Source: Bacillota bacterium (GTDB taxonomy: Bacteria > Bacillota_A > Clostridia > Christensenellales > Aristaeellaceae). Taken from it: a stretch of DNA of 27,427 nt. The stretch lies in the NCBI GenBank assembly GCA_023421735.1, contig JAEZSP010000069.1:1-27427 (forward strand), written 5' to 3'. Below the pieces are notes generated by a model, which saw nothing but the letters and a program-made list of their open reading frames with translations, did no database searches and had not been told where the DNA came from. The stretch's first letter is position 1. The number at the start of each line of letters is the position of its first letter. Positions 1-22,902 of the stretch are shown here, in pieces. A program made the translations under genes and the position numbers.

Positions 1-3000
1 CCCTCTGGCCTTTCACCACATGGTTGGAAAGGAAACACTCCTCCCCTGTGAAAGTGGAACTAAAGCGCTGCCCCCAAAAGTCTGAAGTATTTTGATGCAA
101 CAGAGGGTGAATACATGGGGCAGATACCCCATGTATCCTGCCATGCAGCTTATTACCGTCCGTTGGTATCCAATAGCGTTTCTTAGCAAAAGGATATGTA
201 GGCAGGCAAATATGCCGCGGTTTGCTTTGTCCATACATCAGCTCCCAGGCAACCGTTCCCCCTTGAGCCCAATATTGTGCAATTTTGTCGTGCCTTTTCT
301 TGACGATCCATTTGTGAACTAACTCCTGGGAATCTGCATCATTTCCTAATAAAGCAACGGTATCCCTGCTGGGGCTAACCCGTCCCTGCCAGCAATCCGT
401 GATATGCTCTTCCCCTTTTTCAAAAGCATTCAGCTTTTCAAACAGCTCCGAAATACATTTCACTACAAAGACCGCACGCTCTTCCATGTCCTCTCTTCCA
501 ACCTGAAGGGTATAGGCTATTTCCATCAAATCAATATCCGTACTGCTATAAATCTGGTTTTTATCTTTTGATAACGACTTTTTGAGAAATTCGTGAAGAT
601 TTTTGATATAGACGTGCAAACAATCCTTATTTTTTGCAGATACGGGAATAATGGCGGTTTCACCCCCGTTTACGGGGCATGGCGTCTGATTCGGGATGTT
701 GGAAGCGTCATACTCCTCCAGTATTACATGTGCATTGGCACCGCCAAATCCGAAGGAACTGATACCTGCCCTGAGCGGAATCTCATGTCCCTCTGAATCC
801 CTCAACCGCTTCCACTCCCGGTTCTTTTCCACTATATAAAAGGGACTCTTTTGAAGCTTGATGTAAGGATTGATATTTTTAAAATGAAGAGTTCCAGGTA
901 GAGTCTGACGGTTCATAGACATTAATACCTTAATAAGGCTTGCAATACCTGCTGCAGATTCACAATGTCCGATATTGGTCTTAACTGATCCCAATCCGCA
1001 AAAACCTGCAGAAAGACCAGAGTTGATTTCCTGAAATGCCTCCTGAAGCGCCTGAAATTCAATGGGGTCCCCTAAAGACGTACCGGTGCCGTGAGCTTCA
1101 ATATAGCTGATAGTGTCAGGGTATATGCCAGACTTTTCATAAGCTTCTTTAATAAGCTGCTTTTGGGCGTTAAGGTTAGGCGCCCGCAAAGAATTGGACT
1201 GCCCGTCATGATTGATAACCGCACCTTTAATAACTCCATAGATTGTATCCCTATCTATTACAGCCTGGCTGTAAGGTTTGAGTAAAACAGCTCCATAGCC
1301 CTCAGCCCGGACAAATCCGTCCGCATTTTGGTCAAAAGTCTTACAGTGACCGTCCTTTGAAAGCATACCTGCCTTAAAATCAGCACTGTAAATACGTGAT
1401 GCCAATATAAGGTTAATCCCGCCGGCAATAGCCAGGCTGCTTTCCCCCCGGTAAATAGACTCTGCCGCATGATGTATTGCAACTAGTGAGCTGGAGCATG
1501 CTGTATTGACAACCTCGCTTGGGCCGTGAAAGTTGAACCAGCGGGAGACCCTATGGGCAATCATGCTCACATGCAGTCCGGAATCCAGGTATGCTCCATA
1601 AGCCTCCATCAGCTCAGGCTGCCTTGAAACCAGCTCCGCATAGTCGCTGTTATGCACCCCTAGGAACAATGCAACATTTTTGCCTGACAGTTTGCGCGGG
1701 TTGTATCCGCTGTTTTCAATAACACTCCATGTCAACTCCAAAAGCTTCCTCTGCTGTGGATCCATGCTCTCAGCTTCTAAAGGAGATATGCCGAAAAATG
1801 AAGCATCAAACACATCCACATCGTCAATAAAACCGCCCCATTGAGGAAATGAATCTCTTGTACCCCCATAAAAGCTTTCATAATCTTCTATAATTTGCGG
1901 CCGGCTTTGGGAGATACGGGTAACACAATCCTTATTTTCTATCAAGTTTGCCCAAAACCGTTCTAAGTCTACTGCGCCTCCCGGGAAGTTACAACACATG
2001 CCGATTATTGCAATTTCCCTTTCTCCATCATTCCGGGAATTTATCAAAAATTCTTTCTGTGCTTTGGCTTGCACGGCTGTTTCAGCTGTCGGATCCTCAA
2101 TCTGGGCTGAAATATATTGCGCCAGTTCCTCTAGGTTCCTATATTTGAACAGCAGGGCAGGCGGAAACTGAATAGAGTAGATGTCCTCTATAAGTTTGGA
2201 AATTCTTACATATTGGATCGAATTCAATCCCAGCTCGCTGAATTTAAAAGCCCTTTCCAGCCTTTGCATGTCAAGTTTTAACACAGGAAGGAACACTTTT
2301 CTTTGTAGAGTTTCAAGAATATTAAGATTTATCTTTAATGGACTTTCGAGAATTTCTGACTGGAGCAGGGATGCCCCCTGCCTATACTGATATAAAACTT
2401 CAAGCTCCTGATTCAAAAATTTATTGCGGCAAGCCTTTCTCTGTATTTTACCGCTGCTTGTCCTGGGTATAGCTCCGCTCTCAACCAAATCAATTTCAAA
2501 CACTTCAAGTCCGTGGACTTCTGAGACTGCAGTGAGTATATTCTGGGCAATTTTTTCATACTCCCTTTCATTTAGGGCTGTGTCTATTTCCTGAACCACC
2601 ACTACCTTTTCTTGGAAATCCATTTCCCAGGAAAAAACCGCTATAGACAAAACAAGTTCCGGGACACTTCTCTTAACAGTCCATTCAATATCAACAGGAT
2701 GGTGGTTTTTCCCGTGAATAATTATTACTTCCTTTTCACGGCCTACGACATAAAGATTGTTATCCGCAACAAACCCTAGATCGCCGGTACGTAAAAAGCC
2801 CCCCTCCTTTGTATTTCCCAGAACCCCAGAAAAAGCATTTTCCATTCCACTGTCCCTATCCCAGTACCACACTTCTAAAACAGGGGACTTAATCCATATC
2901 TCGCCAATTTCATCATGTAAGCAAGGTTGACATGTTTCAGGATTTACTATGAATACTTTCAAGGCCTCCCCAATTTCACCACAGCTGGACACAAGCCTGT

Positions 3001-4096
3001 TTTTATTCTTCCGTTTAGTATATTTGACTTTGCTTTGTGCCAAGCTGGAAATGTCCAGGTTAAGGAAATGGAACGGCTGACCCGGTTTTTTTGTACTGAC
3101 AACGATCTCAGACAGGCCATAGTGAGGGCAAAATGCATTCTTTTCTAGCCCCAGCCTTTCAAATTTCTTAATAAAGCTTTCATAGGTCTCCTTGCTGACA
3201 GGCTCCCCACCGCAAATAACAGCCTTTATAGATTTGAGCGAAATATCATTTATAGAATTCGCATCTATAGTGGAACAACAGTAATCAAACGCAAAATTCG
3301 GTGCAGCAATATGGGTGGCACTGTACTGGTCAACAGTCTCAAACCATATTTTAGGTTCTTTAATAAAACTATTTGGCTCCAGAATTATGCTGGAAGCCCC
3401 TTTAACTATAGGCGCCATTATATTAAACAGAAGTCCGAAGCTGTGAAATTGGGGCAACCAGGATACAACACAACTGTTCTGGTTTATCTCCCATTGCTCT
3501 GCTGACATGAATGCCCTGGACATTAAGTTGCGATGACTTATTACCACACCTTTGGGCTGTGACACGGAACCCGATGTATAGAGCAAAATGGCGGTGTCTT
3601 CCTGTGCTTGAGTCCTTGCCTCCTTACAAACGGGTGGATTCTGAGTCAGTTCACTGACATTTATAATAGGAGCACTGCCGAAAATCCGCTTTGCAGTAAA
3701 AAATCCATGAAAGTCAGCATTGGTTATAATGCATACCGCCTCTGACTTCTCGAATAAAATATTTATTTTTTCCATGTCTTGTTCTTTTAGAGGTATATCT
3801 GAAACAGGAGTTGGCACCGCTACCACATTAGCGAAAAAGCACGCTATCAAGCTGTAAATGTATTCCAAACCCTGTGGAAGGGCAATAAGCACTTTTTCTT
3901 GAGACGCGGCTTTTTCCTGCAATGCACTGCCTAATATTTTTATTTTATCAATAAGGTCCTTTCTAGTAAGAAAATCAGAACCGCCTTTTTCCTTTTGAAA
4001 TGTAAACAGCCTTTTTTCCGGAAGCACCTCTAAAAGTTCAATAAAGGAACTTTCAGTAAAAAATAGAGTGTCAACCTGGTCAATCTTTTGTCTCAT
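1..4096 (-). CDS. Trans-AT polyketide synthase, N-terminal part (AL-ACP-KS-DH...), cut by window edge
   Basis: An open frame starts at ATG 4096-4094, with GGAGAG six bases upstream, and stays open to base 1: 1365 complete residues with no stop in the window. Domains in order: an AMP-forming acyl/aryl ligase (about 1-590; core YTSGSVSQPKG around 173-183, RTGDLGF, HYGLSE, and SSGK with Lys550); an ACP (about 595-670; GLNSIQY, phosphopantetheine Ser626); a ketosynthase (about 688-1118; Cys867 in NTACSSSL, His1002 in HGTGTSLGDP, His1044 in NIGHCESAAG, so the triad is intact); a linker ending LPTYPFAKKRYW; and the start of a dehydratase (HPLLHQNTSDF, about 1335 on). There is no acyltransferase between KS and DH, and the linker is of the trans-AT type. 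It would activate a carboxylic acid, load it on the ACP and extend it. It lies 145 bases downstream of the aldolase gene. The ligase ATP loop is unusual (V and S where T and G are normal). The start and domains are seen directly; the substrate is unknown. Confidence 0.95.
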   Translation of the reverse strand, partial: MRQKIDQVDTLFFTESSFIELLEVLPEKRLFTFQKEKGGSDFLTRKDLIDKIKILGSALQEKAASQEKVLIALPQGLEYIYSLIACFFANVVAVPTPVSDIPLKEQDMEKINILFEKSEAVCIITNADFHGFFTAKRIFGSAPIINVSELTQNPPVCKEARTQAQEDTAILLYTSGSVSQPKGVVISHRNLMSRAFMSAEQWEINQNSCVVSWLPQFHSFGLLFNIMAPIVKGASSIILEPNSFIKEPKIWFETVDQYSATHIAAPNFAFDYCCSTIDANSINDISLKSIKAVICGGEPVSKETYESFIKKFERLGLEKNAFCPHYGLSEIVVSTKKPGQPFHFLNLDISSLAQSKVKYTKRKNKNRLVSSCGEIGEALKVFIVNPETCQPCLHDEIGEIWIKSPVLEVWYWDRDSGMENAFSGVLGNTKEGGFLRTGDLGFVADNNLYVVGREKEVIIIHGKNHHPVDIEWTVKRSVPELVLSIAVFSWEMDFQEKVVVVQEIDTALNEREYEKIAQNILTAVSEVHGLEVFEIDLVESGAIPRTSSGKIQRKACRNKFLNQELEVLYQYRQGASLLQSEILESPLKINLNILETLQRKVFLPVLKLDMQRLERAFKFSELGLNSIQYVRISKLIEDIYSIQFPPALLFKYRNLEELAQYISAQIEDPTAETAVQAKAQKEFLINSRNDGEREIAIIGMCCNFPGGAVDLERFWANLIENKDCVTRISQSRPQIIEDYESFYGGTRDSFPQWGGFIDDVDVFDASFFGISPLEAESMDPQQRKLLELTWSVIENSGYNPRKLSGKNVALFLGVHNSDYAELVSRQPELMEAYGAYLDSGLHVSMIAHRVSRWFNFHGPSEVVNTACSSSLVAIHHAAESIYRGESSLAIAGGINLILASRIYSADFKAGMLSKDGHCKTFDQNADGFVRAEGYGAVLLKPYSQAVIDRDTIYGVIKGAVINHDGQSNSLRAPNLNAQKQLIKEAYEKSGIYPDTISYIEAHGTGTSLGDPIEFQALQEAFQEINSGLSAGFCGLGSVKTNIGHCESAAGIASLIKVLMSMNRQTLPGTLHFKNINPYIKLQKSPFYIVEKNREWKRLRDSEGHEIPLRAGISSFGFGGANAHVILEEYDASNIPNQTPCPVNGGETAIIPVSAKNKDCLHVYIKNLHEFLKKSLSKDKNQIYSSTDIDLMEIAYTLQVGREDMEERAVFVVKCISELFEKLNAFEKGEEHITDCWQGRVSPSRDTVALLGNDADSQELVHKWIVKKRHDKIAQYWAQGGTVAWELMYGQSKPRHICLPTYPFAKKRYWIPTDGNKLHGRIHGVSAPCIHPLLHQNTSDFWGQRFSSTFTGEECFLSNHVVKGQR

Positions 4097-4241
4097 ATCT
4101 ATCTCTCCAACATCTTATTTAGTAATCTGAACGTATGATTTTTCAAGGTTTCTGGTCAAAATATCAAGAAAGCCACTTGAGATTTGAAAAATAACTTTAA
4201 AACTAACTTATAGGAAGACAGTAAGTATGCTAAAATAACTA

Positions 4242-5066
4242 TCAAAACTGAAGTTCTAAGTTTCTGCTTCTGGCGCTTTCAGTTTTCTCAAGCCTGTCCA
4301 AGCACTCCTGCAGTTTTATTTCACCATGCACAAATTTTCTTATTAATGTAGTCATAAGCAGCGGGTCTCTATGTTCAAAAATATTACGTCCAATAGCAAC
4401 ACCCGCCGCTCCTCCCGATAGCGCATCACTAATCATATACAGCAATTCTTGACCACTGTTCATTTTGTTCCCACCGGCAATAATTACTGGTATACTCACA
4501 CTTTTTACAATATGTTCCATACTTTTTATTGAACCGGGATAGGCCACCTTGACAATATCTGCACCCAGTTCTTCAGCCAAGCGTGCTGCATGAGCAATAT
4601 CATACGCTTCCCTATTGGATTTGAAGCTATACATCATTGCTAACAGAGGTATACCCCATTCAAAGCTGGCACTTGCTACCCTGCCTAAATCTTTAAGCAT
4701 CTCAGCTTCATTTTCCACTCCCAGATTTACATGTACAGACACCCCATCGGCACCAAGCTTAACAGCCTCTTCGACCGAACCGATCAGAACCTTGTAGTCA
4801 GGATACGGGCTTTGTTTCGTAGAAACGGATAAATGTAGAATATACTGACCTTTCCCCAATTCAGGACATTGCGCAACTTTTTTCAATAACCCTTTATGTA
4901 AAACAACTGCGTCTGCTCCTCCAGAATTTATACATTCGATAGTACTCAAGTATTCTCTTATACCATCAACAGGACCAATCGTTGCACCATGATCGATAGG
5001 AACTATGCAAACCTTTCCTGACTTAGGATTTACCAGCCTTGTCATTCTCAGCTTTTTTCCATACAT
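4242..5066 (-). CDS. 2-amino-3,7-dideoxy-D-threo-hept-6-ulosonate synthase-like aldolase (DhnA/GriI type)
   Basis: A class I (Schiff-base) aldolase of 274 residues, close to the roughly 270 of the archaeal enzyme MJ0400 and Streptomyces GriI. Family motifs: IVPIDHG (Asp25-His26), GADAVVLHKG, GADGVSVHVN, DIVKVAYPG with the probable Schiff-base Lys173, and GAAGVAIGRNIFEH near the C-terminus. The family condenses aspartate semialdehyde with a C3 or C6 sugar phosphate. In archaea the product feeds a variant shikimate pathway; with GriH it yields 3-amino-4-hydroxybenzoate. I chose ATG 5066 because a G-rich Shine-Dalgarno (AAGGGGGGGA) ends five bases before it. An upstream in-frame ATG at 5108 has no good site but lies only four bases after the preceding stop. 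It sits between the DHQ synthase II gene and the PKS on the same strand, so probably one operon. Family is certain; the exact product is inferred. Confidence 0.9.
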   Translation of the reverse strand: MYGKKLRMTRLVNPKSGKVCIVPIDHGATIGPVDGIREYLSTIECINSGGADAVVLHKGLLKKVAQCPELGKGQYILHLSVSTKQSPYPDYKVLIGSVEEAVKLGADGVSVHVNLGVENEAEMLKDLGRVASASFEWGIPLLAMMYSFKSNREAYDIAHAARLAEELGADIVKVAYPGSIKSMEHIVKSVSIPVIIAGGNKMNSGQELLYMISDALSGGAAGVAIGRNIFEHRDPLLMTTLIRKFVHGEIKLQECLDRLEKTESARSRNLELQF

Positions 5067-5112
5067 TGAACTCCCCCCCTTGTCTCTTCTCGTAACCCCG
5101 GCCTTCATACCA

Positions 5113-6246
5113 TTATTTCTCTTTGATAGATTCCTTGATTTTAACTCCTACATGGCGGCCGCTGACACAAACATATGCCAAAAGTTCATCGCCTTTTTTT
5201 ATATTTGAAGCATTGCGAACTTCCCCATCTCCTCCAAAAATCCGTATATGCCAATCATCCTGTACTATGGCATTTACCTTTATACCGTTAGACTCAGCTT
5301 CTATTTTTAAAAGCGGCCTCATTTCAGTCTTTACCCGTCCAACGCTTACCTCCCGTGTATTTCCGTCTGTATCCACACAAAGCAGTTTGCTTCCTCCCTT
5401 CAGCTCAGTCAAATAAGCAGTCATTCCGTCCGGTCCCCAAACGTAAGAATGCACCGCACCTGCATTAACTCTGAACGGCCTAAGTTCCATATAAGGAAGG
5501 TAGTGGGTTTCAGAGCTGACCAACAAGCCCCCTTCAGAAGTAGAGCCTATTATCATTCCCTCATTCTTTTGCATCAGATTGGTAGTGTCAATGCACGCTC
5601 TGTATCCCATTCCAATATGTTGAACTTCACTTACCTTAGCTCTAACCAACTCCAACTTTCCGACTTCTTCCTTTGACATTAAATTATTGAACTCCATAAT
5701 TTCTTCAACATCCTCACACTTAATCACAACCCCGTCACTTCCCGCTTCCATAACGCCCAGTGCGATCTCGGCGTCCTTCAAGTTTTGTACTACCTTTAAT
5801 AAAACCGTACTCTTATCCTGTAACCGGGCAATCAACAGCTCCAATGGAATATTGGTTTCTGCCGTAAGCTCTACCATCAGGTAATCCGTCCGACTTCCGA
5901 TCCGCCAAGCTTCTTCCATATCTTCCTGAACCTCAATCTTACGGTAGAGTGCCGTACTATAACCCTTTTCCTTTGCAGCGTACAGTAAATTTTCTCTAGT
6001 GGATAAAATTATTACTTCTCTGGGAATTTCTTCAATATCTACCTTTTCATCATCAATATCCACAATAAGCGTTACCCTATGCGGCACATTAATCCGCTGG
6101 TACATATCCGCCTTTATCAGCAGATACTCAAACCTCAAATTAAAAACCAACGGCAATATCGTGCTTTCATTTTTCAAGTCTCTCCCATCAAACCAAAATA
6201 TCTTTTTTGAACATTTCGCTATCTCCGCTTCTTTAACAGCATTCAT
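5113..6246 (-). CDS. 3-dehydroquinate synthase II-like enzyme (MJ1249/GriH type)
   Basis: A 377-residue protein of the archaeal-type 3-dehydroquinate synthase II family (Pfam DHQS), close to the usual 350-390. Recognisable segments: KKIFWFDGRD at the start, SDGVVIKCEDVEEI, a middle block GMGYRACIDTTNLM...GMIIGSTSEGG, RPFRVNAGAVHSYV, and the C-terminal beta-rich part ending HVGVKIKE. The archaeal enzyme performs NAD-dependent oxidative deamination and cyclisation of the aldolase product to dehydroquinate. GriH, from the same family, instead forms 3-amino-4-hydroxybenzoate. The frame opens at ATG 6252, but AGGAGG ends one base before that codon, so the second ATG (6246, seven bases from AGGAGG) is the better start. 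It is followed at once by the aldolase gene. Since it heads a PKS operon, aryl precursor supply is more likely than primary metabolism; this is inference. Confidence 0.9.
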   Translation of the reverse strand: MNAVKEAEIAKCSKKIFWFDGRDLKNESTILPLVFNLRFEYLLIKADMYQRINVPHRVTLIVDIDDEKVDIEEIPREVIILSTRENLLYAAKEKGYSTALYRKIEVQEDMEEAWRIGSRTDYLMVELTAETNIPLELLIARLQDKSTVLLKVVQNLKDAEIALGVMEAGSDGVVIKCEDVEEIMEFNNLMSKEEVGKLELVRAKVSEVQHIGMGYRACIDTTNLMQKNEGMIIGSTSEGGLLVSSETHYLPYMELRPFRVNAGAVHSYVWGPDGMTAYLTELKGGSKLLCVDTDGNTREVSVGRVKTEMRPLLKIEAESNGIKVNAIVQDDWHIRIFGGDGEVRNASNIKKGDELLAYVCVSGRHVGVKIKESIKEK

Positions 6247-6309
6247 AGCCATACCTCCTAAAACCGTTTTTAAATTAATTACCAGTATCAGTTTGCTTGC
6301 AAAAAATAA

Positions 6310-6939
6310 TCAATGACACATCTGTTGTATCAAATTATACAAATTTTCCTTTATTCTATTAATATTAACTTCTGCATTTTTAGGGTAATTTATTGAGCAC
6401 GTATAATCTTCTACTATAAAAGAAATAGATCTATACTGTAGAAAATCGGTAAAAGTACTGACAAAATATCCATCATGAAACTCTATACTCTTTACCTCTA
6501 ATGCACTAAGAGGGACTGTCAATCCAATTTGTAATGATTAACTCCACTTCTATCCCTCTATATGTTTGCTGACTAATTTTTTCAATATCAATACATATAA
6601 TGAGCATATCATCAAATGCCACTGCAGCTGCTAAGTCATCACAATGGGTTAAGCTTACCCGTATATTGCTATTTGACTCACAAACTACTAACGCTTGATT
6701 AAAAACTCCTTTTTTAATAAGGATTTTTTTAGATTATCCTCATTAATTAATGCAGAAATCGCTTTTTTAGCAGAATATCTTCCTAATAGATAACTATTTA
6801 CCCTCCGCTCATATATCAGTGTTTCAAAACACCTATATTCGGTGACATGAAGAAAGCTTTTAATGTTCTGATTTTTGAAATCATATCCATTCCTACAAAA
6901 ATTAACATATGCTGTATACGTATATCCTGACGATTTCAA
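6310..6939 (-). pseudogene. Broken Sfp-type 4'-phosphopantetheinyl transferase
   Basis: Three overlapping pieces in different frames together resemble a phosphopantetheinyl transferase, the enzyme that activates ACPs. Piece 1 (6939-6688, TTG start) has the N-terminal signature FLHVTEYRCFETLIYE and SYLLGRYSAKKAISAL. Piece 2 continues in another frame (about 6710-6506): KKGVFNQALVV, VSLTHCDDLAAAVAF, IDIEKIS. The frame changes within or near a run of seven A (plus-strand T 6724-6730); one added A there restores a smooth reading NLKKILIKKGVFNQ. Piece 3 (6522-6310) holds the C-terminal part: GLTVPLSALEVKSI, FTDFLQYRSISFIV, YTCSINYPK. Between pieces 2 and 3 about 50-60 residues usual for the family are missing, including the WTxKE region. 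The frameshift alone could be a sequencing error or slippage, but the deletion makes this a dead gene. Family recognition is from remembered motifs and was not searched. Confidence 0.75.
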
Positions 6940-7045
6940 AAAATGTGATCAGTATATGTGTAACTGCCTTCAATATTGTTTTTTTTAGTAGCAACTTATA
7001 TTATGCATAGTGTATATTTGCTATTCTAATTTCTATACAAAATAA

Positions 7046-7427
7046 TTATGAGTGAATTTCTATGTCATCTAAAATTTGATGTATTAACATAAAAACTTCT
7101 TTGGCAATAGCCAATTCATCATCTGCTCCTGTAACATCTATTCCTCCCATAAGTGCAGCAAAACTGCCAATATATTTTTGGGTGTCGCTAGAAAACCTAC
7201 TAAGGCTTGAGTAAGTACTTTCAACCTTAGAATCTAATGTTAGTTTCTGACTATTTGTTCAACAAATATAAATCTATTACTGCATCATCAAATACATATG
7301 ATTTTTCATGAATTGATAGCGGCTTTCCATTATTTAATGCAAAAATGCTGACTTGCTAAATAGATTTCAAGTTTAAACCTTTTACTTTTACAGCAATATC
7401 ATTTGTAGCATAGCTTCGCCATTTCAT
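7046..7427 (-). pseudogene. Broken ORF of unknown function
   Basis: On the minus strand, ATG 7427 opens a frame beginning MKWRSYATNDIAVKVKGLNL. It meets an in-frame TAG at 7358-7356 and then continues in the same frame through SIFALNNGKPLSIHEKSY and VFDDAVIDLYLLNK to a stop at 7253-7251. A neighbouring frame then carries on (LTLDSKVESTYSSLSRF, YIGSFAALMGGIDVTGADDE, LIHQILDDIE) to TAA at 7048-7046. Joined, this gives about 125 residues of plausible soluble protein with one nonsense codon and one frameshift. I do not recognise the family. No clear ribosome binding site precedes the ATG. It lies just upstream of the broken phosphopantetheinyl transferase and has the same kind of decay. It could be chance open frame in AT-rich DNA. 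Confidence 0.4.
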
Positions 7428-7566
7428 GCATAAATTTTTACATACTACTTAACATTTTGCTATATGTCCCCTTCTTTCCACCAAAGTGTCTTAGCTTCTA
7501 TCGGTTCTTCAAAGGTTAAAAAACATAATAATAAAAGTGCTATGTATACTTTTTTGGACATTTTTG

Positions 7567-7575
7567 TGTTATAAT
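7567..7575 (+). promoter_or_regulatory. Extended -10 promoter (TGTTATAAT) of the small RNA
   Basis: TGT followed by a perfect TATAAT (7570-7575) forms an extended -10 element. No convincing -35 hexamer is present at 17 bases (the sequence there is ATACTT). A start near 7582 is expected. The surrounding 19-mer (7566-7584) recurs with one mismatch on the minus strand at 21184-21166, ahead of the thioesterase gene. Confidence 0.55.
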
Positions 7576-7581
7576 ATAAAT

Positions 7582-7668
7582 AGCAAAGTAAAATAGCATA
7601 AAGCTATTGTGCTGCTAGCCCATAAATCATCTGTTTCCGCCAAGAAGTTGCATGATTTATGGGTTTTT
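7582..7668 (+). ncRNA. Candidate small non-coding RNA, about 87 nt
   Basis: A short transcription unit with promoter, body and terminator but no sensible ORF. The body has a 6-bp hairpin AATAGC (7592-7597) / GCTATT (7603-7608) with a 5-nt loop, then a linker GTGCTGCTAG, then the terminator hairpin at 7619-7663 followed by T5. Compensated pairing and the closeness of promoter and terminator are what suggest an RNA gene. I cannot match it to a named family. It sits in the decayed region between the two PKS gene groups. It could be a regulator, the antitoxin RNA of a lost toxin, or a leftover leader. The sequence shows the structure; expression is inferred. Confidence 0.5.
7619..7668 (+). terminator. 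Rho-independent terminator of the small RNA
   Basis: A perfect 12-bp inverted repeat, CCCATAAATCAT (7619-7630) with ATGATTTATGGG (7652-7663), flanks a 21-nt loop and is followed directly by TTTTT on the plus strand. The loop is longer than usual. The minus strand lacks a T run after the stem, so it should work in one direction only. Confidence 0.65.
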
Positions 7669-7783
7669 ACTTATTTAACACATACATACCAAATATATAA
7701 CGAATAACTCTATTTAATTTATTCCCTATATCCACTTGGTAAAAATTCAATGATATTATATTAACATGCGCAACCATACATGT

Positions 7784-7819
7784 CAACATTTTACATTTAT
7801 ACAATTATGTAGAATGTTG
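7784..7819. repeat. Near-perfect 13-bp inverted repeat
   Basis: CAACATTTTACAT (7784-7796) faces ATGTAGAATGTTG (7807-7819) across a 10-nt spacer. Twelve of 13 positions are complementary, and the thirteenth is a U-G pair in plus-strand RNA. T-rich sequence follows on the plus strand. It could be a weak terminator or a protein-binding operator. Confidence 0.5.
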
Positions 7820-8060
7820 TTATTTATTGTAATTTTATAAATATATAACATTAATTCCATTTTTAAACATTTGTAATAATAGCAACACTGTAATTGAGTC
7901 TTCAAAGTACAACATACTGTGTTACATTTCATTCGCTATGCGAATTAGCTTTTGTTTTTCACTGTGCTTATTATCTCTTTTTTCCTTATCTACCCTTTTC
8001 TGTTTTAACAATTACCCACCCTGCCATCCACATTAATTTCCCCATACCTTTTCACATTAA

Positions 8061-8146
8061 TAAAGCACCAATCATCGTGAACCAACCTCCAATTGCTAGA
8101 TTTTAGGTCTAACTTTGGGGTTCGGTTTATCTGAATTGGTGCTTTA
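8061..8146. repeat. 86-nt nested stem structure with 12-bp perfect outer arms
   Basis: The outer arms are TAAAGCACCAAT (8061-8072) and ATTGGTGCTTTA (8135-8146). Inside, AACC (8080-8083) can pair with GGTT (8124-8127), AACC (8084-8087) with GGTT (8119-8122), and TAGA (8097-8100) with TCTA (8108-8111). Read on the minus strand, the inner part contains a GGAGG site and ATG 8075, giving a seven-codon ORF that overlaps an arm, so the ribosome site would be buried in the structure. It could be a folded mRNA leader, a mobile-element end or a miniature element. No target-site duplication was recognised. Confidence 0.5.
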
Positions 8147-8318
8147 CACATAAAACAAAAGCAAATTATTGCTCATCTACATGTTAGGGGGTATGTTCAT
8201 TTATTGGCAACTTTCTGGTTTAAGTCCCTTTTATGGTAAAACGGAAATTAGTTTTTAGGATATCAACTAAAGAGCTTTTATTATTTTTTTATTATTCATT
8301 TCCTATATTAATATCCAT

Positions 8319-11300
8319 TTAATACCCATATTCCATCAAGTATTTATGTACGGTCTCATTAAACATCCGGTAGTTGGTGATATACGGAAAGTGCCCAGAA
8401 TCTTCGAATACAAAGCTTATTGCATCTTGAATATTGCCAAGCAGAAAATCCGTTTCATCGTTTCCAAATACAGCTCCCTTAAACTTGTCTAGTGCACTCG
8501 AAATAACAAATACAGGTTTCTTTATGTTCTTAACCGTATACCTAGTTGACATTTGCTGGAGTGCTCCTAAGTATTCCAGGGCAGCCAGAGGATCCATTGA
8601 TTGGCTTCCATAATAAATCAGCTTGTTTTGATCTACTGTATTTGTGTCTAATCCCTTTATATCGTTAATGCTATCCTTTCCAGCGTTGTTAAATACTTTT
8701 AATGCCTCACTATGCCTCATGCTTTTAAACTCTTCCGTAACCTTACTAAAGCTGCATACAAGTATGATTGCAGAAAGCTTCGTGGAAAATCTGCTGGCAA
8801 AATCCTGAGCAAGCATTCCACCAAATGAAGCTGCAATCATGGGAACAGGCTCAACTATGCCCATACACTCTAGGGTATAATTAATGGCGCAGGATAACTT
8901 TTCAAGAGACATATCTTTCATAGTTTTACTTTTACCATGTCCTGGTAAGTGAATTATTATTAACCTATAATCCTTCTTCCATTCTTTAATCTGATAGTAC
9001 CATATAGAAGCCGCCATTCCAAATGCAGATAGTAGCAGCAAAGGTTTTCCTGTTCCTACTTCTATTACTTCAATATCTAAATAGCCATTATATTTATAAA
9101 CATTGCTGACGACTGCATTATCAAGCTCCATTAGCAAGTTGAAGTATTCACTTCTGCGTTTTACTGAAGGTGTATTTTCACCGGGCTTGCTAATATCAAT
9201 TAATTTCATGAATTTTTGGCGGTTTGCCCTTACTGGAATTACCTGGTTCTGAGAACTATTCAAACCCTTGTCGAATATCTCCATTCCAAGTTTATCATCA
9301 ATTGTCTTAATCCCGTAGGTATTAAGAAATAATGATTTTATCTTCTCATCAACTTGCATACCTCCGTTTTCCCATAAAGACCAGTTAAAAGATTTTGATT
9401 CCCCTTTTCTTCTACCTTCCGCGCAAAGTGCTTCTCTGGCTTGAATAAAACTGTCCAAGAAGCCATTAGCATAAGCATAATCACTTTGCCCAATATTGCC
9501 TGTAATAGAAACAAGAGATGAATAGAGTATAAAGAAATCAAGTTCCAGCTCTTTGGTGGCTTCATCGAGAAAAACAGTACCCTTAATTTTAGGCATCATA
9601 ACTGCTTCAATTTCGTTTTTGCTCTTGCTACCAATCAAGTTATCATAGTTAACTCCTGCACAGTTGATTACCCCGTTAACAGTACCCCATTTTTCCAATA
9701 CTTCACTAACAGCTCCCCTTACATCACCAATATTGGTAATATCCGATTTTAAATATACTACATCTGATCCGTTATTTCCAAGCTCCCCTAAAAGCTGTTT
9801 CTTCTCCCAGGTTAGCTCAGAGCGTCCTAAAATGGCAATCTTAACCTGTTTTAATCCGACAAGGTGCTTTGTAAGTATCAATCCTAAACCGCCTATTCCC
9901 CCAGCAATAATATAAACACCTTTGTCTCTGATTTTGATACTGTCAATCTCATCAAAAGGATAGCTATTCTCATATAATACCTTGACATATCTACTCCCAT
10001 TACTGTACTTTATCTCAAGATGGCCCATACTGTCAAAAGCTTCTTGGAGGACTATATCCAGTTCGGGCATACTGTCTTTATTCCAGGCCCTTCCCCATAA
10101 ATCCATATCTGATTCAATCAGTTTAAACCAGATTTTATTGTTTTCTAGATGCACACCTTTGAAGAGCCCTTTCAGAGCTGAATAGAAAATCTGTCCTGGG
10201 GTACCAGTCTTATACAGGGTAAAAATATTCAGCTGCTCCTTCGATTTAACATTATACAAAGCTTTACATAAGGAGAAGATTGGGTATATTTCTTTCAAAT
10301 ATCTGTCAACCTGATACTCCAATCCGTGTAAATCACTTTCGTAATATTCAGGAAGTAGATAGCAGAAAATATCAGGAAGTGCCCCGTCGGCTACATGTTC
10401 CTCAATTAACCTGCAAAAATGCTTATCATTTTGGTAATCGATAGTATACTCATTCTTATTAGTACTATAAAATTCAACTCCCGGCTTCACCAAAATCAAT
10501 TTTTCATTCTCAACAATATCAGTGCTTATCCTTTCGGCACAATCAAAAATCATAACTTTTGGCTGGTTCTCACCATCTTTATTTTCTGTCAATTCCTGCT
10601 TCTCCCACAGATATGAAAAATACATAACCTCACTTTCTAATCCGTTTTTTTGATTAGTACTATCCATAACAGGCTTCGAAGGCAAATCAAGCTGCTGGTC
10701 TGACAAATATCGTTTTAGCTCCTCGATTGTTGAATATTCGAATAGCAAAGTAGGATACAAAGTCTTTCCAACCTTGCCTTCTAGTCTGTAAGTCATCTCT
10801 AATAAATCGGTGGAATCTAGACCTAATTCATAGAAACTCTCTTTAGTATTTACTTTTTCTATTGGGATACCGGCTACTTCTGCAACCATTTTCTTCAATT
10901 CCTCCGTTAGATCTTGAGGCAACAAATCTAACTCGTTTTGCAGATTTCCAGCTTCGCCCTTTACCAATTTAGCAGTAGAGCAGTTATTCATATTCCCCTT
11001 AAACTCAACAGCATCTAACCTAGTAATCAAGTCTTTTGCACGAATTTTTTTAGCTACAAATTTATCAAAAGCTGCTATAAAGTCTCCGTTTGCATCAACA
11101 ATAGCTATACTTGAGTACATCATGTCCTCCGACTGTATATCGGTATTCTGCTTCTCTACATATATATAGCATTTTTCATGTGTCTTTGCATTACCGTAGA
11201 AGCTTTCAATAAATATCGGTATAAATGGAGGCATACTTTCAGATGCAATGCCCTTATACTGGAACATAAATGATACTATGGATGCCGAATCCATGAATGC

Positions 11301-14300
11301 CGGGTGAAAGTAGGTGAATGGCAAATATTTTTTTCCGGACTCGCTTAGCACCACCTCTGCAAGTAACCAGTCTTCATGCAAGTATATCTTCCCAGAAGGC
11401 TTCATAAACTCAAAATGTTCAATACCAGCTGCCCTTACATAGCGATATGCATCATCGAGTTCAAGCACTTGGACTTCTTTTTGTTTCAGAGAATCAATAT
11501 CGATATGCATATGCTCTTGTACACTATCGAGACGAATATCGCAACGAAAGTTTTCTTCCCATTCGCTCTCTAGTAGTCCTGAAACTGTACATTTTCTGCT
11601 TTCCCCAACTACACTATAGCTTTGATTATTCTTACTTACTTTCATTGTCACTTCCCTGTCGAACAACTTGGAAGTAGAGATGGGAGTCTTAAACAGCACA
11701 TTCTGCACTGTTATTTTTTCAAGTTCCAAGCCTATAAGTTCTAAGGCTCTATATAAGAAGTCTATAAACGTAACACCAGGCATGATACTTACACCATGTA
11801 CATGATGATCCCTTACTATATAATCATCATTTCCGATTTTTAGCCCAAATTCGAATGAGTCCTTTTTCCTGCTCTTCAATTCTATAGCACTAAAGCGTTG
11901 ATGAGCTGGATACAAAGTATCCACAACTTTTGGTCTATCCATCCATAGCCGTTCCTTTGTGTACTCTACAGGTTTCAGTTCCTTCCTATAACATCTATAA
12001 AATGGGTATTCACTCAAGTATAAATCACTTAAGATGACATGCGCATTTGTTCCGCCAAAACCAAATGAACTGATTCCTGCACGCCTTACCTGATTAACCG
12101 GCTTCCACTGCTTTAATTCATTGACAATATAAAATGGTGACTGGGAAAAGTCAAACCTTGGATTTGGTATTTCACAGTTTAATGAGGGAGGGAGTTGCTT
12201 ATTATATACGCTAAGAACAGTCTTTATAAAGCCTGCTATCCCGGCGGCACTAAGTAGATGACCTATATTGGTCTTTACACTTCCGATTCCACAGTATTGT
12301 TTTGATTGGGTGTATTCTTGAAACACAGATGTAAGTGCCTTAAGTTCAATAGGGTCGCCGATCAGTGTTCCTGTACCATGGGCTTCAATATAGGAAACAG
12401 TTTCCGGGTTTATACCTGCTTTATTTATAGCCTCATTTATTACTTCAATTTGAGCTTCAAAATTGGGTGTAGTAATCCCCATGGTATTCCCATCATTGTT
12501 AACAGCCGTAGCCTCAATTACCGCATAAATCTTATCGCCGTCAGAAACAGCCCTTTCAAGTGGTTTTAACAAAACCGCTCCGCAGCCCTCTCCAGGTACA
12601 AATCCGTTTGCATTCTTATCGAAAGTATGACATTTACCGTCAGGGGATAATGCCTTTGCCTGGCTAAGTAAAATATATGTTTTTTCATCTAGAAGCAGAT
12701 CGACTCCACCTGCAATACACATTTCCGTCTCACTAGCATTTAGGCTCTGACATGCAAGGTGAAGGCTGACCAATGAAGATGAACATGCAGTATCCACCAC
12801 CATACTTGGTCCCTTCAAGTTCATAAAATGTGATAAATGCGCTGCAATAAAGTTTTGCCCTGCTGCCACAATCGTATCCTTTGTGGGCCGCTGTATTCGC
12901 TGCGAGTAACTGGATATTCTTGCCCCTACAAAAACACCCACCTTCCTACCAGAAAGTTCATCCCTGTCATAACCTGCATCTCTTGTAACGTCAACTCCCG
13001 CTTCCAGGAAAAGTCTTACCAGAGGGTCGGTCTGTTTAGCGGCTTCCTTGTCTATTTTAAAATAATGTGGGTCGATTTCATTAATATCATCGATAAAACC
13101 TCCCCACTTACTCATACTCTTACCCTCGCAGAAACCCTCCTGAAAGTACTCTTCGGTATCCCATCTTGAAGAGGGCACCTCTACGACAGAATCTTTACCA
13201 GCTTTTAAATTATTCCAGAATTCATTCTTGTCAGTAGCTCCTGGGAAACGGCATGTAACTCCGATAACAGCTATCTTCCCTGACTTTTCCTGATATTTAT
13301 CTGACCCTAACTCTGTACAAGCGGATACCCCCTCATACTCAATCATTTCATCGAAATCCTGGCACACCAACTTTTCCATGCTACTTTGATTTTCCACCAA
13401 TACCTGCTTTGCATCACAATTATCACCCAGAAAAGTTGCCAGAGTCTTTATGTTTGGATACTCCCAGAAAACCGAAGGTTCAAGAACTATACCGAGCCTT
13501 TCCTCTATTTTTTTTACTAGCTCAGCTAGAATAATAGAATCAAACCCAAGACTATCAAAGTTCGCTGCTTCTTTTATCTTATCTGGCTGTATTTTTAGTT
13601 CACTTGAGAACAGCTCCTTTAGGCAGTTTACCATTTGGTTGTCTTCTGTTTTTATTGCTATATCCGGAACAGTTTCTACAGATAACGGCTGGACACCCCT
13701 TTTCACTTGCAGCAAGCATTCATTTCCGAACTTTTGCCTATCTACCTTAATAATTGAAATATTTTGGGGTTCATTTGTTCCAATGCATTTGTCGAATAAT
13801 TTAAGCCCTTCATCCAATGATATCGCTAGAAGACCAAGCTCCATGAATTTATCGGTTAGCTTAGCCCCTATACCCATGTGTTTCCAACTAGTCCAATTAA
13901 TGGATTTGTAGTATCTAAATCCTTCTTTAGCTTTGCTTTCAACAAATGCATCCATATAGTAATTGGCTGCAGAGTAATCACATATTCCAGTCGCCAAACT
14001 AGGTACAAGTGCAGAAATTGAGGAAAAAAGTATAAAGAAATCTAAGCAGTCATTTTCAAATACTCTATGCAGTATCTCAAGTGCACTTACCTTTGGTTCA
14101 AGAACTGCCTGGATATTAGACAACTTCTTGTTAATAAAAGCAGGGTTTTCATGGATAGCCAAGCCTGCGCAATGTATCACTCCTCCAATATTGCCAAAGC
14201 TTGTGCGTATCTCACTAAAATATTCTTTTAGCTCCCTCTCATTAATCAAAGACCCACAATACACATGGATTTGAGCACCCATTTTCTCCAACTCAATAAT

Positions 14301-17300
14301 TTGTGTAATTTTATTCACCAAGTCATTGTTCTGATACTTAGATGCAATTATCTGCTGCCACAACTCGCGATCAGGTATTTTTTGCCGACCTGTCAAAATC
14401 AATTTTTTGACTCCACTTTTCACCAAATGCCTTGCAATTTCCAATCCGATCCCTCTAGTACCGCCAGTAACTACTACAACTTTACCACTATTTAGTCGTG
14501 GAATGTCTACACTCCTATCAAGTAGCTGTTTAGTATACTTTTCAGAAATTTTCATATATGGTATCAGTCGTCTTCCGTTTCTGTAGCAAACCTCGCTTAT
14601 GTTTTCCCAAACTCTGACCTCCTTGTAAGTGATATCATCCAGGCGGTCTAAATCATTCCATAGTAAATCTACGGTTTTTGCATAAACTTTACCGTATTCA
14701 GCTCCAAGCATTCTAACAAATCCAGCCATTACAGTCCCCTTGAGATTTATTTTCCCATTGTCAGGCTTCTGCCTTCCAAGGGTAAAATGTAACAGCAGCA
14801 ATTTCTCATAAGGATAATTTTTTATAAGAGCCTGTATTAGTTCCAGCCTCTCTAGCTCCTGTGCAGGGTTTACCTCTTCCTGTGAGATATCTGACAAATC
14901 TATATAGACTGTATTTTTATCAAATTTTATATTACCTAATGCTTCCATTGAATCACTGTCATTTAAAATATAAGTGTTCTTATTCCATGTCCAAGTAATC
15001 TTTTGCAGCAATTCCATTGAGTTTTTATTAACAACAAAAATAATCGTGCCTAATGTATCCTTACTGCTTATTACCTCCTCTGAATACTTCCACACCTTTT
15101 CCAGTAATAGAATTTCATGTTCCGAATTAGTCTGCTTTAACTTTGTTGAATCTACTTGAGGCCAGTATTTTTCATTCCTGAATGGATATGTAGGCAGGGC
15201 TATCCTTCTTTTGTCAATACCCTTATGTAAGAGCTCCCATTCAATATTAAACCCGGAAACCCATAATTGTGCTATGACCTTATAATTTCGATTTTTAGCA
15301 AGCAGCCTAAGGTATTCTTTTCCTTCCTCATTGTCAAGGAAGTGACCAGTTTCCATATTGTTTTCCGTACGACTGCCAGAAAACAGTTTATCGGCAGTTT
15401 CTTCTCCTGTACAATACCTGTCCAGTAGTTCATACAATTCCTTAATATTTGACACAATTGCTGCCAATCGCTCTGTCATAGACACCCTCCCTGTCTGAAG
15501 GGTATATGCTATATTGGAAAGGCTCATTTCCTGGACACAACCACCATAATAATACTGATTTCCCATAATACTGCCAATATTATCCTTTAATCTTACTACA
15601 TACTTTTTAAGGGTTTCCTTGTCATTTGCTGACAGGATTACAATCTCAGGACCATATTGCAATTGTACTTCATTAGCTGCACAGTCTGTGTGTTCTTCAA
15701 GTACAAGATGTGCATTGCTTCCTCCAAAACCAAACGAACTTACTCCAGCAATCCTTTTTCCCCTCTCGAAGTTCCACTCAGTGAGGTTTGTAGGAATTTG
15801 AAACGGAGTATTTTCTATCTGGATTAATGGATTTAGTTCCTTGAAATGCAAGTTCTGAGGTATCTTTCTGTAATACAACATCAAGGTAGCCTTAATCAAG
15901 CCTGCCATACCGGCTGCAGCCTCCAGATGACCAATGTTTGTTTTTACTGATCCCACATAGCATTTTTCTTGGCCTTTATACTCACCCGAAAATACTTCCT
16001 TTAAGGCTTGAAATTCGATAGGATCTCCCAGTGATGTACCCGTTCCATGAGCTTCAATATAACCAACTTGTGAGGGCTTAATTTTTGCATTTTTCAGTGC
16101 CTTTTTGATAACATCCTGCTGAACAATTCCATTAGGAACTGTCAGACCGCTACTTTTCCCATTATGGTTGATTGCACTTCCTTTAATTACTGCATATATT
16201 GTATCCTTATCTTGCAACGCCTTGTGTAAAGGTTTTAATATGACTACTCCACAACCTTCACCTCTCACATATCCATCGGCAGCCTTATCAAAGGTCTTAC
16301 ACTTTCCATCTTTCGAAAGCATACCTGCCTTATTGAAGGCTATATTTAAATCGGATGTAAGGATAAGATTTACTCCTCCGGCAACAGCCAATTCACATTC
16401 ACCCTCAGAGAGACTCCGACATGCCTGATGAACTGCTACCAATGAAGAAGAGCATGCTGTATCTACGACTATACTAGGTCCCTGGAAATCAAACAAATAC
16501 GATATCCTATTAGCATTGATGGAGAAGGCATTTCCTGTACCATAGTAAGCATTTACCACCTCCGGTGATGTCTCCTGAATACGCAGATATTCAGAATTGG
16601 AAACACCTATAAATACGCCAGTGCTTGTTCCTCTCAAATTTGTAGGGTTTATTCCCGCATACTCAAATGCTTCCCAACATACTTCCAATAGAATTCTTTG
16701 TTGGGGGTCCATATTTTCTGCTTCACGTGGAGAAATCCCAAAGAAAAGAGGATCAAATTCATCAACTTTATCTATAAATCCTCCCCACTTTGGCCATTCA
16801 ACTGAGGATAGATTTTCACTGCTGTATAAATTTCTATCCTCCGGTATTTTAGTGACTGCATTTGTGCCTTCCACCAGTAAACTCCAAAACTCTTCCGGAT
16901 TTGAAGCTTTCGGAAACCGACAACCAATACCTACAATCGCAATTCCCTCCAAAACTTCCGATGGGTCAGGCTGCTCCTGTACATTTGCCTGATGATTCTT
17001 TATTGGTTGTTCTCCAGCTAAATGTTGAGATAATTTCTTTATCGTTACATAATCATATATTAAAGTTGGTGAAACATCCCTATTCAGCCAATCACTTAGT
17101 TCAGATGCTATTCTTATAATTTTAACAGAGTCGAGCCCAAAGCTGGAAAACGACTCTTCCAGTCCGATTTGTTTGAGCGTAAGGTTTTTTACCACTGCAA
17201 TTTTTTCAACCAGCCAGTTTTGTATGCTCAATGCATCCTTGTCTGAATTTTCTGTTTTACTATCGTCTGGCTTCTCAGAGTTCTTCTCGGCAAATTCCAT

Positions 17301-19016: not shown

Positions 19017-19051
19017 AGTTCAAAATTACCCCCCTTAAGCAATTGCGGTCC

Positions 19052-19080
19052 TTTAATGATAGTTCTTTCAGTTGTGTCAA
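19052..19080 (-). promoter_or_regulatory. Possible promoter of the large PKS gene
   Basis: On the minus strand TTGACA (19080-19075) is a perfect -35 hexamer, 17 bases before ATTAAA (19057-19052), a poor but possible -10. A start near 19045 would give a leader of about 30 bases before the PKS ATG at 19016. The PKS could therefore be transcribed separately from the radical SAM gene 203 bases upstream. Confidence 0.4.
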
Positions 19081-19219
19081 TTAGAAAATAAATTTATTCT
19101 CGAGGTAATTTAATTTCCATTATGTGGGAAATACACATTTGAGGAAAGCTGTCCTTACGGTTTGAGTATAAAGACACTTCTTTAGATATTACTTTCCATT
19201 GACAATTTTAAGTATGGTA

Positions 19220-20720: not shown

Positions 20721-21143
20721 TTACTTATTAATTAGAATGTACCAGGTAAATTTTGAAAACATTGTAACTTCATTCTCTGAATCATACACTTTAACAATAA
20801 CATCAAACAACGCACGTCCTTTGACGTTTAAATTATCTTTAACCTTCTCGATATCTTTATCGTTCATGGTTGCATGAGAAAATATGGCACCTTTAGCAGG
20901 CTTTTTATATTTAACTTCAACAGATCTTACTACTGGAATAACCCCTTTTTCCGTATATTCTTCGAAAACTTCCAGCAAATATTGACCACTCGTCGCTTCT
21001 GCAAGAGCAAACTGAGCGCTGGCATGAACTGTTTCCAAATGATTCAAGTATTGGGGCTCATCTTGTATCTCAAAAACATATTCTTCCTTATCGGTTTTTT
21101 TTATTTTCATAAATTCATTAAACGCAATTTTAGTTATATCCAT
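20721..21143 (-). CDS. Hotdog-fold thioesterase-like protein (DUF4442/PaaI-like)
   Basis: 140 residues, the size of a single hotdog domain. The central helix region YLNHLETVHASAQFALAEA and following strands (VIPVVRSVEVKYKKPAKG) match the DUF4442/YiiD-type acyl thioesterase group. Such proteins hydrolyse acyl-CoA or acyl-ACP thioesters in the cytosol. As the first gene before the radical SAM protein and PKS, it may clear misprimed ACPs or release a chain. ATG 21143 has GAGGAG eight bases upstream. An extended -10 element at 21183-21175 would put the transcript start about 25 bases before the ATG, so this gene probably leads the operon. Fold assignment is by motif memory; substrate unknown. Confidence 0.75.
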   Translation of the reverse strand: MDITKIAFNEFMKIKKTDKEEYVFEIQDEPQYLNHLETVHASAQFALAEATSGQYLLEVFEEYTEKGVIPVVRSVEVKYKKPAKGAIFSHATMNDKDIEKVKDNLNVKGRALFDVIVKVYDSENEVTMFSKFTWYILINK

Positions 21144-22777: not shown

Positions 22778-22825
22778 TTTAAATCCCTCGAACAATTAAA
22801 GTGAATATTGTTATATTTTTAGTCT

Positions 22826-22864: not shown

Positions 22865-22902
22865 GAAAAAAGACATCAAATAATTTTTACGGAGGGTTAA
22901 AA

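What the first reader, a model, noticed from the sequence alone, without database searches (positions are those of the whole stretch)
1..6246. PKS with its own aryl precursor genes: possible 3-amino-4-hydroxybenzoate-primed polyketide
Seen: a DHQ synthase II-like gene and an ADH synthase-like aldolase gene sit directly upstream, same strand, of a PKS that starts with an adenylating ligase and ACP. Known: GriI/GriH make 3-amino-4-hydroxybenzoate, this acid starts one polyketide chain in manumycin-type compounds such as asukamycin, and clostridial closoxazoles use it too. Inferred: the ligase loads this acid onto ACP Ser626, giving a modular trans-AT polyketide with an aminohydroxybenzoyl starter, which I do not know to be described in anaerobes.
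Basis: partly seen in the sequence, partly recalled or inferred. Interest (0 to 1): 0.78.

Follow-up and report, generated by a model that had tools for sequence, protein, structure and literature searches.

The report
Probable aryl-primed clostridial polyketide genes
Two genes that very probably make a small aromatic acid sit right in front of an assembly-line enzyme whose first domain probably picks up that acid, so this bacterium likely builds an aromatic-capped polyketide of a kind not yet described.

Summary
On the minus strand a DHQ-synthase-II/GriH-like gene (5113-6252), an ADH-synthase/GriI-like gene (ORF 4242-5108) and an AT-less PKS starting AL-ACP(Ser626)-KS-DH (2-4096, cut by the window) lie in tandem. 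Relatives support most of the interpretation. The pair is not primary metabolism there: 11 of 11 DHQS-II genomes tested also carry aroB. The window's DHQS falls in a 97/97 clade; of nine other members with a readable neighbourhood, eight lie in or beside PKS/NRPS genes, and closoxazole-type rows fall outside. The ligase is FAAL-derived, which argues against an aryl substrate, but it belongs to a 100/100 clade lacking the Asp of the FAAL 'HDMG' motif (0 of 42 rows; 21 of 21 others have it). Members sit directly behind a chorismate lyase (two sister genomes) or PABA synthase plus AurF (Burkholderia glumae plasmid). The second PKS (8319-19016) is a separate three-gene cluster. Unproven: 3,4-AHBA as the substrate, the window's own aroB, the rest of the PKS. 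Against: in three relatives with whole genomes this ligase is not beside the pair, and those with aryl-acid neighbours lack the window's AL-ACP-KS layout.

The parts
5113..6252 (-). DHQ synthase II / 3,4-AHBA synthase (GriH-like), 379 aa
   Evidence: PF01959 360 bits; 74% to P0002 (source name: 3-dehydroquinate synthase II/3-amino-4-hydroxybenzoic acid synthase) and 68% to P0003 (3-amino-4-hydroxybenzoic acid synthase); tree
4242..5108 (-). ADH synthase (GriI-like) class I aldolase; likely start at 5066
   Evidence: NF005556 over its cut-off; aligned to MJ0400 (2qjg) with the DHG, MMY and DIVK stretches kept (residue roles recalled); ribosome-binding site before 5066
4097..4241 (-). 145 bp spacer between ADHS and PKS-B with a Shine-Dalgarno; no terminator-like site, one promoter-like match at chance level
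2..4096 (-). PKS-B, first 1365 aa: AL-ACP-KS-linker-DH, no AT, runs off the window
   Evidence: Pfam; KS and start of DH match trans-AT PKS structures; G211 homologue 55.6% over 1319 aa
2372..4096 (-). AL (adenylating ligase) domain AL_B, FAAL-derived, motif SWLPQFHSFG
   Evidence: 300 bits to FAAL 3kxw, 64 to 4-coumarate-CoA ligase; clade 100/100
3440..3442 (-). codon of Ser219, in place of the Asp of the FAAL HDMG motif
2111..2287 (-). ACP with Ser626 (codon 2219-2221)
   Evidence: PF00550
578..2020 (-). KS of module 1 with its C-terminal extension
   Evidence: 63.5-76% identical in 19 of the 20 proteins P0121-P0140 (P0127 not in the list)
2..109 (-). start of DH domain (NHVVKG), cut by the window end
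   Evidence: PF21089 24.2 bits, under its cut-off of 27; aligned in 7zma
6253..8318 (.). 2 kb gap between the two PKS units; at 6310-6939(-) fragments with a sub-threshold phosphopantetheinyl-transferase match
   Evidence: 4PPT_N E 0.044, 14.3 bits against cut-off 27
8319..19016 (-). PKS-A, AL-ACP-KS-KR-ACP-KS-DH-ACP-KR-TE; judged a separate gene cluster
   Evidence: G378 orthologue 54% over 3572 aligned positions without the pair or PKS-B
19220..20581 (-). B12-binding radical SAM protein of the PKS-A block
   Evidence: 80% in G378
20721..21143 (-). DUF4442 / YiiD_C thioesterase-like protein of the PKS-A block
   Evidence: 57% in G378

Best explanation
DHQS-ADHS-PKS-B is the start of a secondary-metabolite operon. 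The GriI-like aldolase joins aspartate semialdehyde and dihydroxyacetone phosphate, and the GriH-like enzyme turns the C7 product into 3-amino-4-hydroxybenzoate (chemistry from known homologues; not shown here). The AL domain of PKS-B, a member of an aryl-loading offshoot of the FAAL family, adenylates this acid and passes it to ACP Ser626. The first AT-less module (KS-DH..., KR expected beyond the window) adds one malonyl unit supplied by an AT elsewhere and would give a 3-amino-4-hydroxycinnamoyl-type intermediate. Later modules lie outside the window. PKS-A is a separate neighbour.
For: (1) Same-strand tandem order, short gaps, no terminator-like site between ADHS and PKS-B. (2) Pair on one strand within 2.5 kb in 73 of 80 loci. 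(3) aroB present besides DHQS II in 11 of 11 genomes tested; DHQS II in only 5 of 391 genomes in the class of G001 and 6 of 299 in the class of G012, centres counted, so it is accessory. (4) Tree: window DHQS inside a 97/97 clade with DHQS of PKS/NRPS clusters G001, G148, G588, G915, G921, NRPS clusters G928 (with a start of a KS) and G007, the PKS-remnant G378, and G010 (no PKS/NRPS found); closoxazole-type rows outside. (5) AL_B lies in a 100/100 clade of 42 rows (41 proteins), none with the FAAL Asp, against 21 of 21 other rows with it; in the 120 listed homologues 82 have D, 14 N, 14 A, 10 S. (6) In that clade G378 and G928 have an Rv2949c-like chorismate lyase directly upstream, and the B. 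glumae plasmid has a PabB/aminotransferase fusion, PabA and AurF directly upstream. (7) Both AL_B carriers at E 1e-110 among 391 genomes (G211, G378) are among the 5 DHQS-II carriers; leaving out the centre, 2 carriers among 4 of 390, chance 8e-5, not corrected for relatedness. (8) Precedent: FAAL22 is specific for p-hydroxybenzoate, and AmbG accepts aromatic acids (PMC11837247, passages).
Against: AL_B is closest to fatty-acid ligases in sequence. In G211, G378 and G928 the AL gene is not beside the DHQS pair (other contigs or 350 kb away), and in G211 no aryl-acid gene was seen in the 60 kb fetched. The members with aryl-acid neighbours besides the window (G378, G928, B. glumae) pass from AL-ACP to an NRPS A domain, not to a KS like the window's; for the AL-ACP-KS subgroup the only neighbourhoods read are the window and G211. 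Co-occurrence in the order of G378 is weak once the centre is left out: one carrier (G928), among 7 of 57 (0.12). None of 35 contig lengths of top AL hits equals any of the 120 DHQS contig lengths listed (longest contigs only), so AL_B's nearest sisters P0122 and P0123 apparently have no close DHQS on theirs. In other pair-bearing clusters the neighbouring activating enzymes are NRPS-type A domains or closoxazole-type ligases, not AL_B. Control: one canonical-FAAL protein (G915:C8) also follows an aroB-like gene, so adjacency is not exclusive.
Confidence: 0.62

Rival explanations
1. The pair makes 3,4-AHBA, but PKS-B starts with another acid (fatty or another benzoate) and AHBA is attached later through its amine, as an acyl acceptor or chain terminator.
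For: Relatives with the pair in PKS/NRPS clusters carry amine-acylating enzymes in the same cluster: NAT family (PF00797) next to DHQS in G921 and its 74% identical homologue in G915; BtrH_N proteins in G588, G915, G007 and G010. AL_B is FAAL-derived, and AL_B relatives elsewhere work without the pair beside them.
Against: No NAT or BtrH_N match among the 11 window ORFs scanned, though the cluster is cut; AL_B is in the non-HDMG clade, some members of which have aryl-acid neighbours.
Confidence: 0.23
2. The two PKSs and the pair form one manumycin-like pathway: PKS-A makes an acyl chain for the 3-amino group, PKS-B the AHBA-primed chain.
For: Both PKSs are on the same strand; manumycins have an AHBA-primed lower chain and a separately made upper chain attached by an arylamine acyltransferase (PMC8000086, passages).
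Against: DUF4442-rSAM-PKS-A is conserved as a block in G378 (57%, 80%, 54%) with neither the pair nor PKS-B in the 40 kb around it; PKS-A has its own TE; a 2 kb gap lies between.
Confidence: 0.08
3. The pair is the cell's primary dehydroquinate route and only happens to lie beside the PKS.
For: DHQS II/ADHS serve primary metabolism in archaea (recalled); DHQS II rang in 3 archaeal control genomes; the window genome is not held.
Against: 11 of 11 bacterial DHQS-II genomes tested also have aroB; DHQS II is rare and mostly sits in biosynthetic clusters.
Confidence: 0.04

Closest known systems
Manumycin-type lower chain (asukamycin, colabomycin)
   Same: 3,4-AHBA is the starter of a mostly polyene polyketide chain (PMC8000086, passages); the GriI/GriH-type origin of this AHBA is recalled
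   Different: Actinobacterial; C5N unit and arylamine acyltransferase genes, not seen in the window; that its AHBA chain is not made on an AL-ACP-started AT-less modular PKS is recalled
Closoxazole / pfx benzoxazole clusters
   Same: Dedicated 3,4-AHBA pair (ClxE, ClxB) in an anaerobic Clostridium; AMP ligases use AHBA (PMC12118335, passages)
   Different: Ligases and amidohydrolase, not seen in the window; the closoxazole-type Firmicute DHQS form separate clades
FadD22/FAAL22 and AmbG
   Same: FAAL-family ligases (AmbG a FAAL-ACP didomain) reported to take p-hydroxybenzoate or aromatic acids (PMC11837247, passages)
   Different: Relation of AL_B to them not tested here; different cluster context and starter
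Clostridial trans-AT PKS/NRPS clusters, e.g. C. cellulolyticum H10
   Different: No AL_B-type loading domain in G148 at E 1e-60
Aureothin and elansolid (both recalled)
   Same: PKS primed with p-nitrobenzoate or p-hydroxybenzoate from cluster-encoded genes
   Different: Different starter acid and hosts; not compared by any search

Membership tests
GriI/GriH-type 3,4-AHBA pair | DHQS II-family gene adjacent to ADHS-family gene | tested here: met
   also 73 of 80 loci
GriI/GriH-type 3,4-AHBA pair | Passes curated equivalog/exception models | tested here: not met
   TIGR01949 290.9 of 299.45; BagC_FevH 244.8 of 750; BagB_FevI 212.3 of 500; the DHQS models NF002623-NF002628 also under their cut-offs (best 298.3 of 375). 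Subfamily NF005556 met at 295.4 of 241. The exception models are made for single pathways.
GriI/GriH-type 3,4-AHBA pair | Canonical aroB also present in the genome | tested here: inconclusive
   window genome not held; 11 of 11 relatives tested have it
GriI/GriH-type 3,4-AHBA pair | Makes 3,4-AHBA | not testable with these tools
   needs expression
trans-AT PKS | KS modules without AT, KS of trans-AT type | tested here: met
   no PF00698 in either PKS; best KS match 7zma, AT-less and trans-AT PKS entries below it; only the first module of PKS-B is visible
trans-AT PKS | Free-standing AT in the cluster | tested here: inconclusive
   none in the window, which cuts the cluster; present in G588 and G915
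FAAL | Sequence closest to FAALs over full length | tested here: met
   300 bits to 3kxw
FAAL | HDMG-type motif with Asp | tested here: not met
   FHSFG; 0 of 42 clade rows have D, 21 of 21 others do
FAAL | Fatty-acid substrate | not testable with these tools
   needs assay
Closoxazole cluster | Amidohydrolase and two AMP ligases beside the pair | tested here: not met
   no such match among the window ORFs scanned
Manumycin-type cluster | C5N genes and arylamine acyltransferase | tested here: inconclusive
   no arylamine acyltransferase match among the window ORFs scanned; C5N genes were not sought by model; the cluster is cut

The most novel reading that the evidence does not exclude
A distinct clade of FAAL-derived loading domains, marked by loss of the HDMG Asp (to N, S or A), is a general benzoate-loading family placed behind whichever aryl-acid pathway is at hand (4-hydroxybenzoate, PABA/p-nitrobenzoate, 3,4-AHBA). 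The window holds its 3,4-AHBA version: an aminohydroxycinnamoyl-primed modular polyketide, probably from an anaerobe.
Probability: 0.46. Interest if true: 0.7.

Novelty: new variant of a known kind. Interest (0 to 1): 0.6.

Why it matters
If right, it gives a simple sequence mark (loss of one motif Asp) for aryl-loading PKS/NRPS starters hidden among annotated fatty-acyl ligases, and links 3,4-AHBA, known from manumycins and closoxazoles, to modular trans-AT polyketides of clostridia, whose products are little explored. It also exposes clostridial and Brevibacillus PKS/NRPS clusters that carry the same precursor pair.

Tried and rejected
Rejected: PKS-A as part of the same pathway. AL_A as an AHBA-specific ligase: an AL_A-type domain occurs in 23 of 58 genomes of the order, against 8 of 58 for DHQS. 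PKS-B as kin of the 7zma bimodule in particular: its KS scores 545 and 531 bits against the two KS of 7zma, a general trans-AT KS match; two Brevibacillus G588 PKSs also have 7zma among their best hits, with 856 and 817 bits.

Led nowhere: own genome. AL_B in 299 genomes of G012's class and 229 of G002's phylum, none at E 1e-110 (the tool warns that an empty answer without a positive control shows nothing). Plasmid relatives of AL_B other than the two B. glumae records are under 35% identity in the 20 rows listed of 1196. dN/dS of the R. josui pair against G148 (0.05 DHQS, 0.16 ADHS, 0.23 PKS remnant) fits a kept pair beside a decaying PKS but is not decisive. Paper searches for a 3,4-AHBA-primed trans-AT PKS (listings) and passages of six papers showed none; most subscription journals are not held. 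Structure prediction was not used, since it would not settle the substrate.

Mended on re-checking: my order-level co-occurrence figure (0.017) counted the centre genome, which I had chosen because it was positive; without it the figure is 0.12. I had also left out that the aryl-neighboured relatives have another domain order after the ACP.
Full report
Observation. All genes in question are on the minus strand and read from right to left: DHQS II-like (5113-6252), ADHS-like (ORF 4242-5108, likely start 5066), then PKS-B (2-4096), which is cut by the window edge. PKS-B begins with an adenylating ligase (AL_B), an ACP with Ser626, a KS with intact motifs, a RhiE-like linker and the start of a DH; no AT was found. 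Upstream lies a 2 kb gap without a convincing gene, then PKS-A, a radical SAM protein and a DUF4442 protein.

What the pair is. The two best DHQS relatives bear source names that include 3-amino-4-hydroxybenzoic acid synthase (P0002 74%, P0003 68%); many others are named 3-dehydroquinate synthase II. Among 80 related loci, 73 have an ADHS on the same strand within 2.5 kb: 19 in the order seen here, 54 in the reverse order. All 11 DHQS-II genomes tested, picked from the carriers then known, also have aroB over the family cut-off. DHQS II is rare: 5 of 391 genomes in the class of G001 and 6 of 299 in the class of G012, each count including the centre genome. The window's own genome is not held, so its aroB could not be checked.

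Which pathway type. Of 13 Firmicute loci at 45-52% identity (L002-L009, L011-L014, L027), 10 carry the closoxazole-type amidohydrolase and 3 only other genes of that set, on partly short contigs. Of seven genomes above 52% (G001, G007, G010, G148, G211, G378, G588), five show KS or NRPS domains beside the pair; G010 shows none; G378 has a PKS remnant 75% identical to the PKS next to the pair in G148. G915, G921 and G928, read later, also have KS and/or NRPS domains there; in G915 and G921 ADHS and DHQS are about 11 kb apart in one cluster. The tree of 47 DHQS rows (46 different) puts the window in a 97/97 clade of 25 rows with G001, G148, G588, G915, G921, G928, G007, G010 and G378; the other 15 rows of the clade are database proteins without a readable neighbourhood. 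G211 and the closoxazole-type rows lie outside. 14 of 27 rows that I wanted from the loci were dropped because my motif filter found no ORF; they include Streptomyces and Sorangium. No archaeal row was available. G588 matches P0032 (Brevibacillus antibioticus) and G378 matches P0026 (Ruminiclostridium josui) at 100%; G148 is taken as C. cellulolyticum H10 only by its contig length (recalled).

The ligase. By sequence AL_B is FAAL-like: 300 bits to 3kxw and 293 to 7r7e, but 138 to McyG, 64 to 4-coumarate-CoA ligase and 49 to benzoate-CoA ligase. This argued against an aryl substrate. The tree of 63 AL rows changed that view: 42 rows, including AL_B, form a 100/100 clade on a long branch, and none has the Asp of the HDMG motif; the 21 others all have it. 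Two of the 42 (G211 and P0129) are the same protein, and of P0161-P0240 only 15 were put in the tree. In the 120 listed homologues the residue is D in 82, N in 14, A in 14 and S in 10; one of these, P0215 (A), was not in the tree. The alignment places this position under the Asp of NRPS A domains; that this is the 235 position of GrsA (Asp) and DhbE (Asn) is recalled.

Neighbourhoods. Five members could be read: the window (3,4-AHBA pair); G378 and G928 (Rv2949c-like chorismate lyase ending 15 and 13 bp before the AL protein); B. glumae (PabB/aminotransferase fusion, PabA, AurF); and G211 (no aryl-acid gene among the genes looked at in 60 kb, but the DHQS pair sits on another contig). G378 and G928 are sisters in the tree, so this is 3 of 4 independent contexts, the window included. 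A limit: G378, G928 and B. glumae pass from AL-ACP to an NRPS A domain, so the AL-ACP-KS layout of the window is backed by no aryl neighbour but its own. As a control I looked at eight FAAL starts with the HD motif (window PKS-A, G378 3.43 Mb, G001 twice, G915 twice, G933, G306; motifs). One, G915:C8, follows an aroB-like gene and a HAD protein; not all neighbours of the other seven were family-scanned. A FAAL specific for p-hydroxybenzoate and a FAAL-ACP accepting aromatic acids are in print (PMC11837247, passages).

Co-occurrence. In the class of G001 both AL_B carriers at E 1e-110 (G211, G378) are among the five DHQS-II carriers; without the centre, which was chosen as a DHQS carrier, chance gives 8e-5. 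At E 1e-75 there are four carriers, three of them (with G009) DHQS-positive; G306 is not. In the order of G378 the carriers are G378, the centre, and G928; without the centre this is one carrier among 7 of 57, 0.12. Relatedness and the general richness of these genomes in PKS genes are not corrected for. In none of the three genomes is the AL gene beside the pair. The 35 AL contig lengths that I compared share none with the 120 DHQS lengths, which speaks against a fixed AL_B-pair partnership; the starter acid probably varies within the clade.

KS support. The KS after AL_B is 63.5-76% identical in 19 of the 20 proteins P0121-P0140, more conserved than the AL itself (42-57% in the rows listed). 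In trans-AT systems the KS tends to follow its incoming acyl group (established knowledge), which suggests a common class of starter in this subgroup, but not which one.

Cluster limits. In G378 the DUF4442-radical SAM-PKS-A block is kept in the same order (57%, 80%, 54%) with neither the pair nor PKS-B in the 40 kb read. PKS-A is therefore taken as a separate cluster.

Mechanism. Shown: gene order, families, active-site motifs, phylogeny, neighbourhoods. Inferred: the pair makes 3,4-AHBA; AL_B adenylates it and loads Ser626; the first KS elongates it with malonyl from a trans AT; DH with a KR beyond the window gives an aminohydroxycinnamoyl intermediate. Relatives P0124-P0126 and P0139 have both DH and KR matches; P0122, P0123, P0129 and P0131 have KR without DH.

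Comparison and novelty. It works like the AHBA-primed lower chain of manumycins (PMC8000086, passages) but on an AT-less modular PKS. No taxon was established for the window; the nearest named relatives are clostridial, so an anaerobe is likely. It shares the precursor pair with closoxazoles (PMC12118335, passages) but shows none of their ligases or amidohydrolase. No listing showed this combination. I rate it a new variant of a known kind.

Noticed in passing
L170:1026-1517 (G921); G915:C9, 255-aa ORF across L172/L173: An arylamine N-acetyltransferase-family gene (PF00797 in G921; 74% identical homologue in G915) sits just downstream of DHQS in a PKS/NRPS cluster, with a glycosyltransferase next to it; this recalls the manumycin upper-chain transferase.
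   Followed up: partly
L145:17646-18908, L146:4460-5467 (G588); L172:15364-18276 (G915); L152:6285-7301 (G007); L151:12275-13279 (G010): BtrH_N proteins recur near the DHQS/ADHS pair in four genomes; candidates for acylating the amine of AHBA.
   Followed up: partly
L182:4562-7149 (G915:C8): An aroB-like DHQ synthase and a HAD protein lie directly upstream of a canonical-FAAL NRPS protein; possibly a C7 aminobenzoate or cyclitol route.
   Followed up: no
window 8319-21143: DUF4442-radical SAM-PKS-A is a conserved three-gene block shared with an R. josui genome (G378, 3.43 Mb).
   Followed up: partly
window 6310-6939: Frame-broken fragments with a weak 4PPT_N match (E 0.044); possibly a decayed phosphopantetheinyl transferase upstream of DHQS.
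   Followed up: partly
L117 (G378, 632 kb): In R. josui the pair is intact beside PKS remnants broken up by genes that look like transposon genes by eye, as if kept for another user.
   Followed up: partly
L184:7588-13896 (Burkholderia glumae plasmid): PABA synthase, AurF and an AT-AL-ACP start of a PKS/NRPS: a probable p-nitrobenzoate- or PABA-primed pathway.
   Followed up: partly
window 21923-27194: AraC-type regulator, L-fucose isomerase and a rhamnulokinase-like kinase flank the clusters; ordinary sugar-use genes.
   Followed up: no
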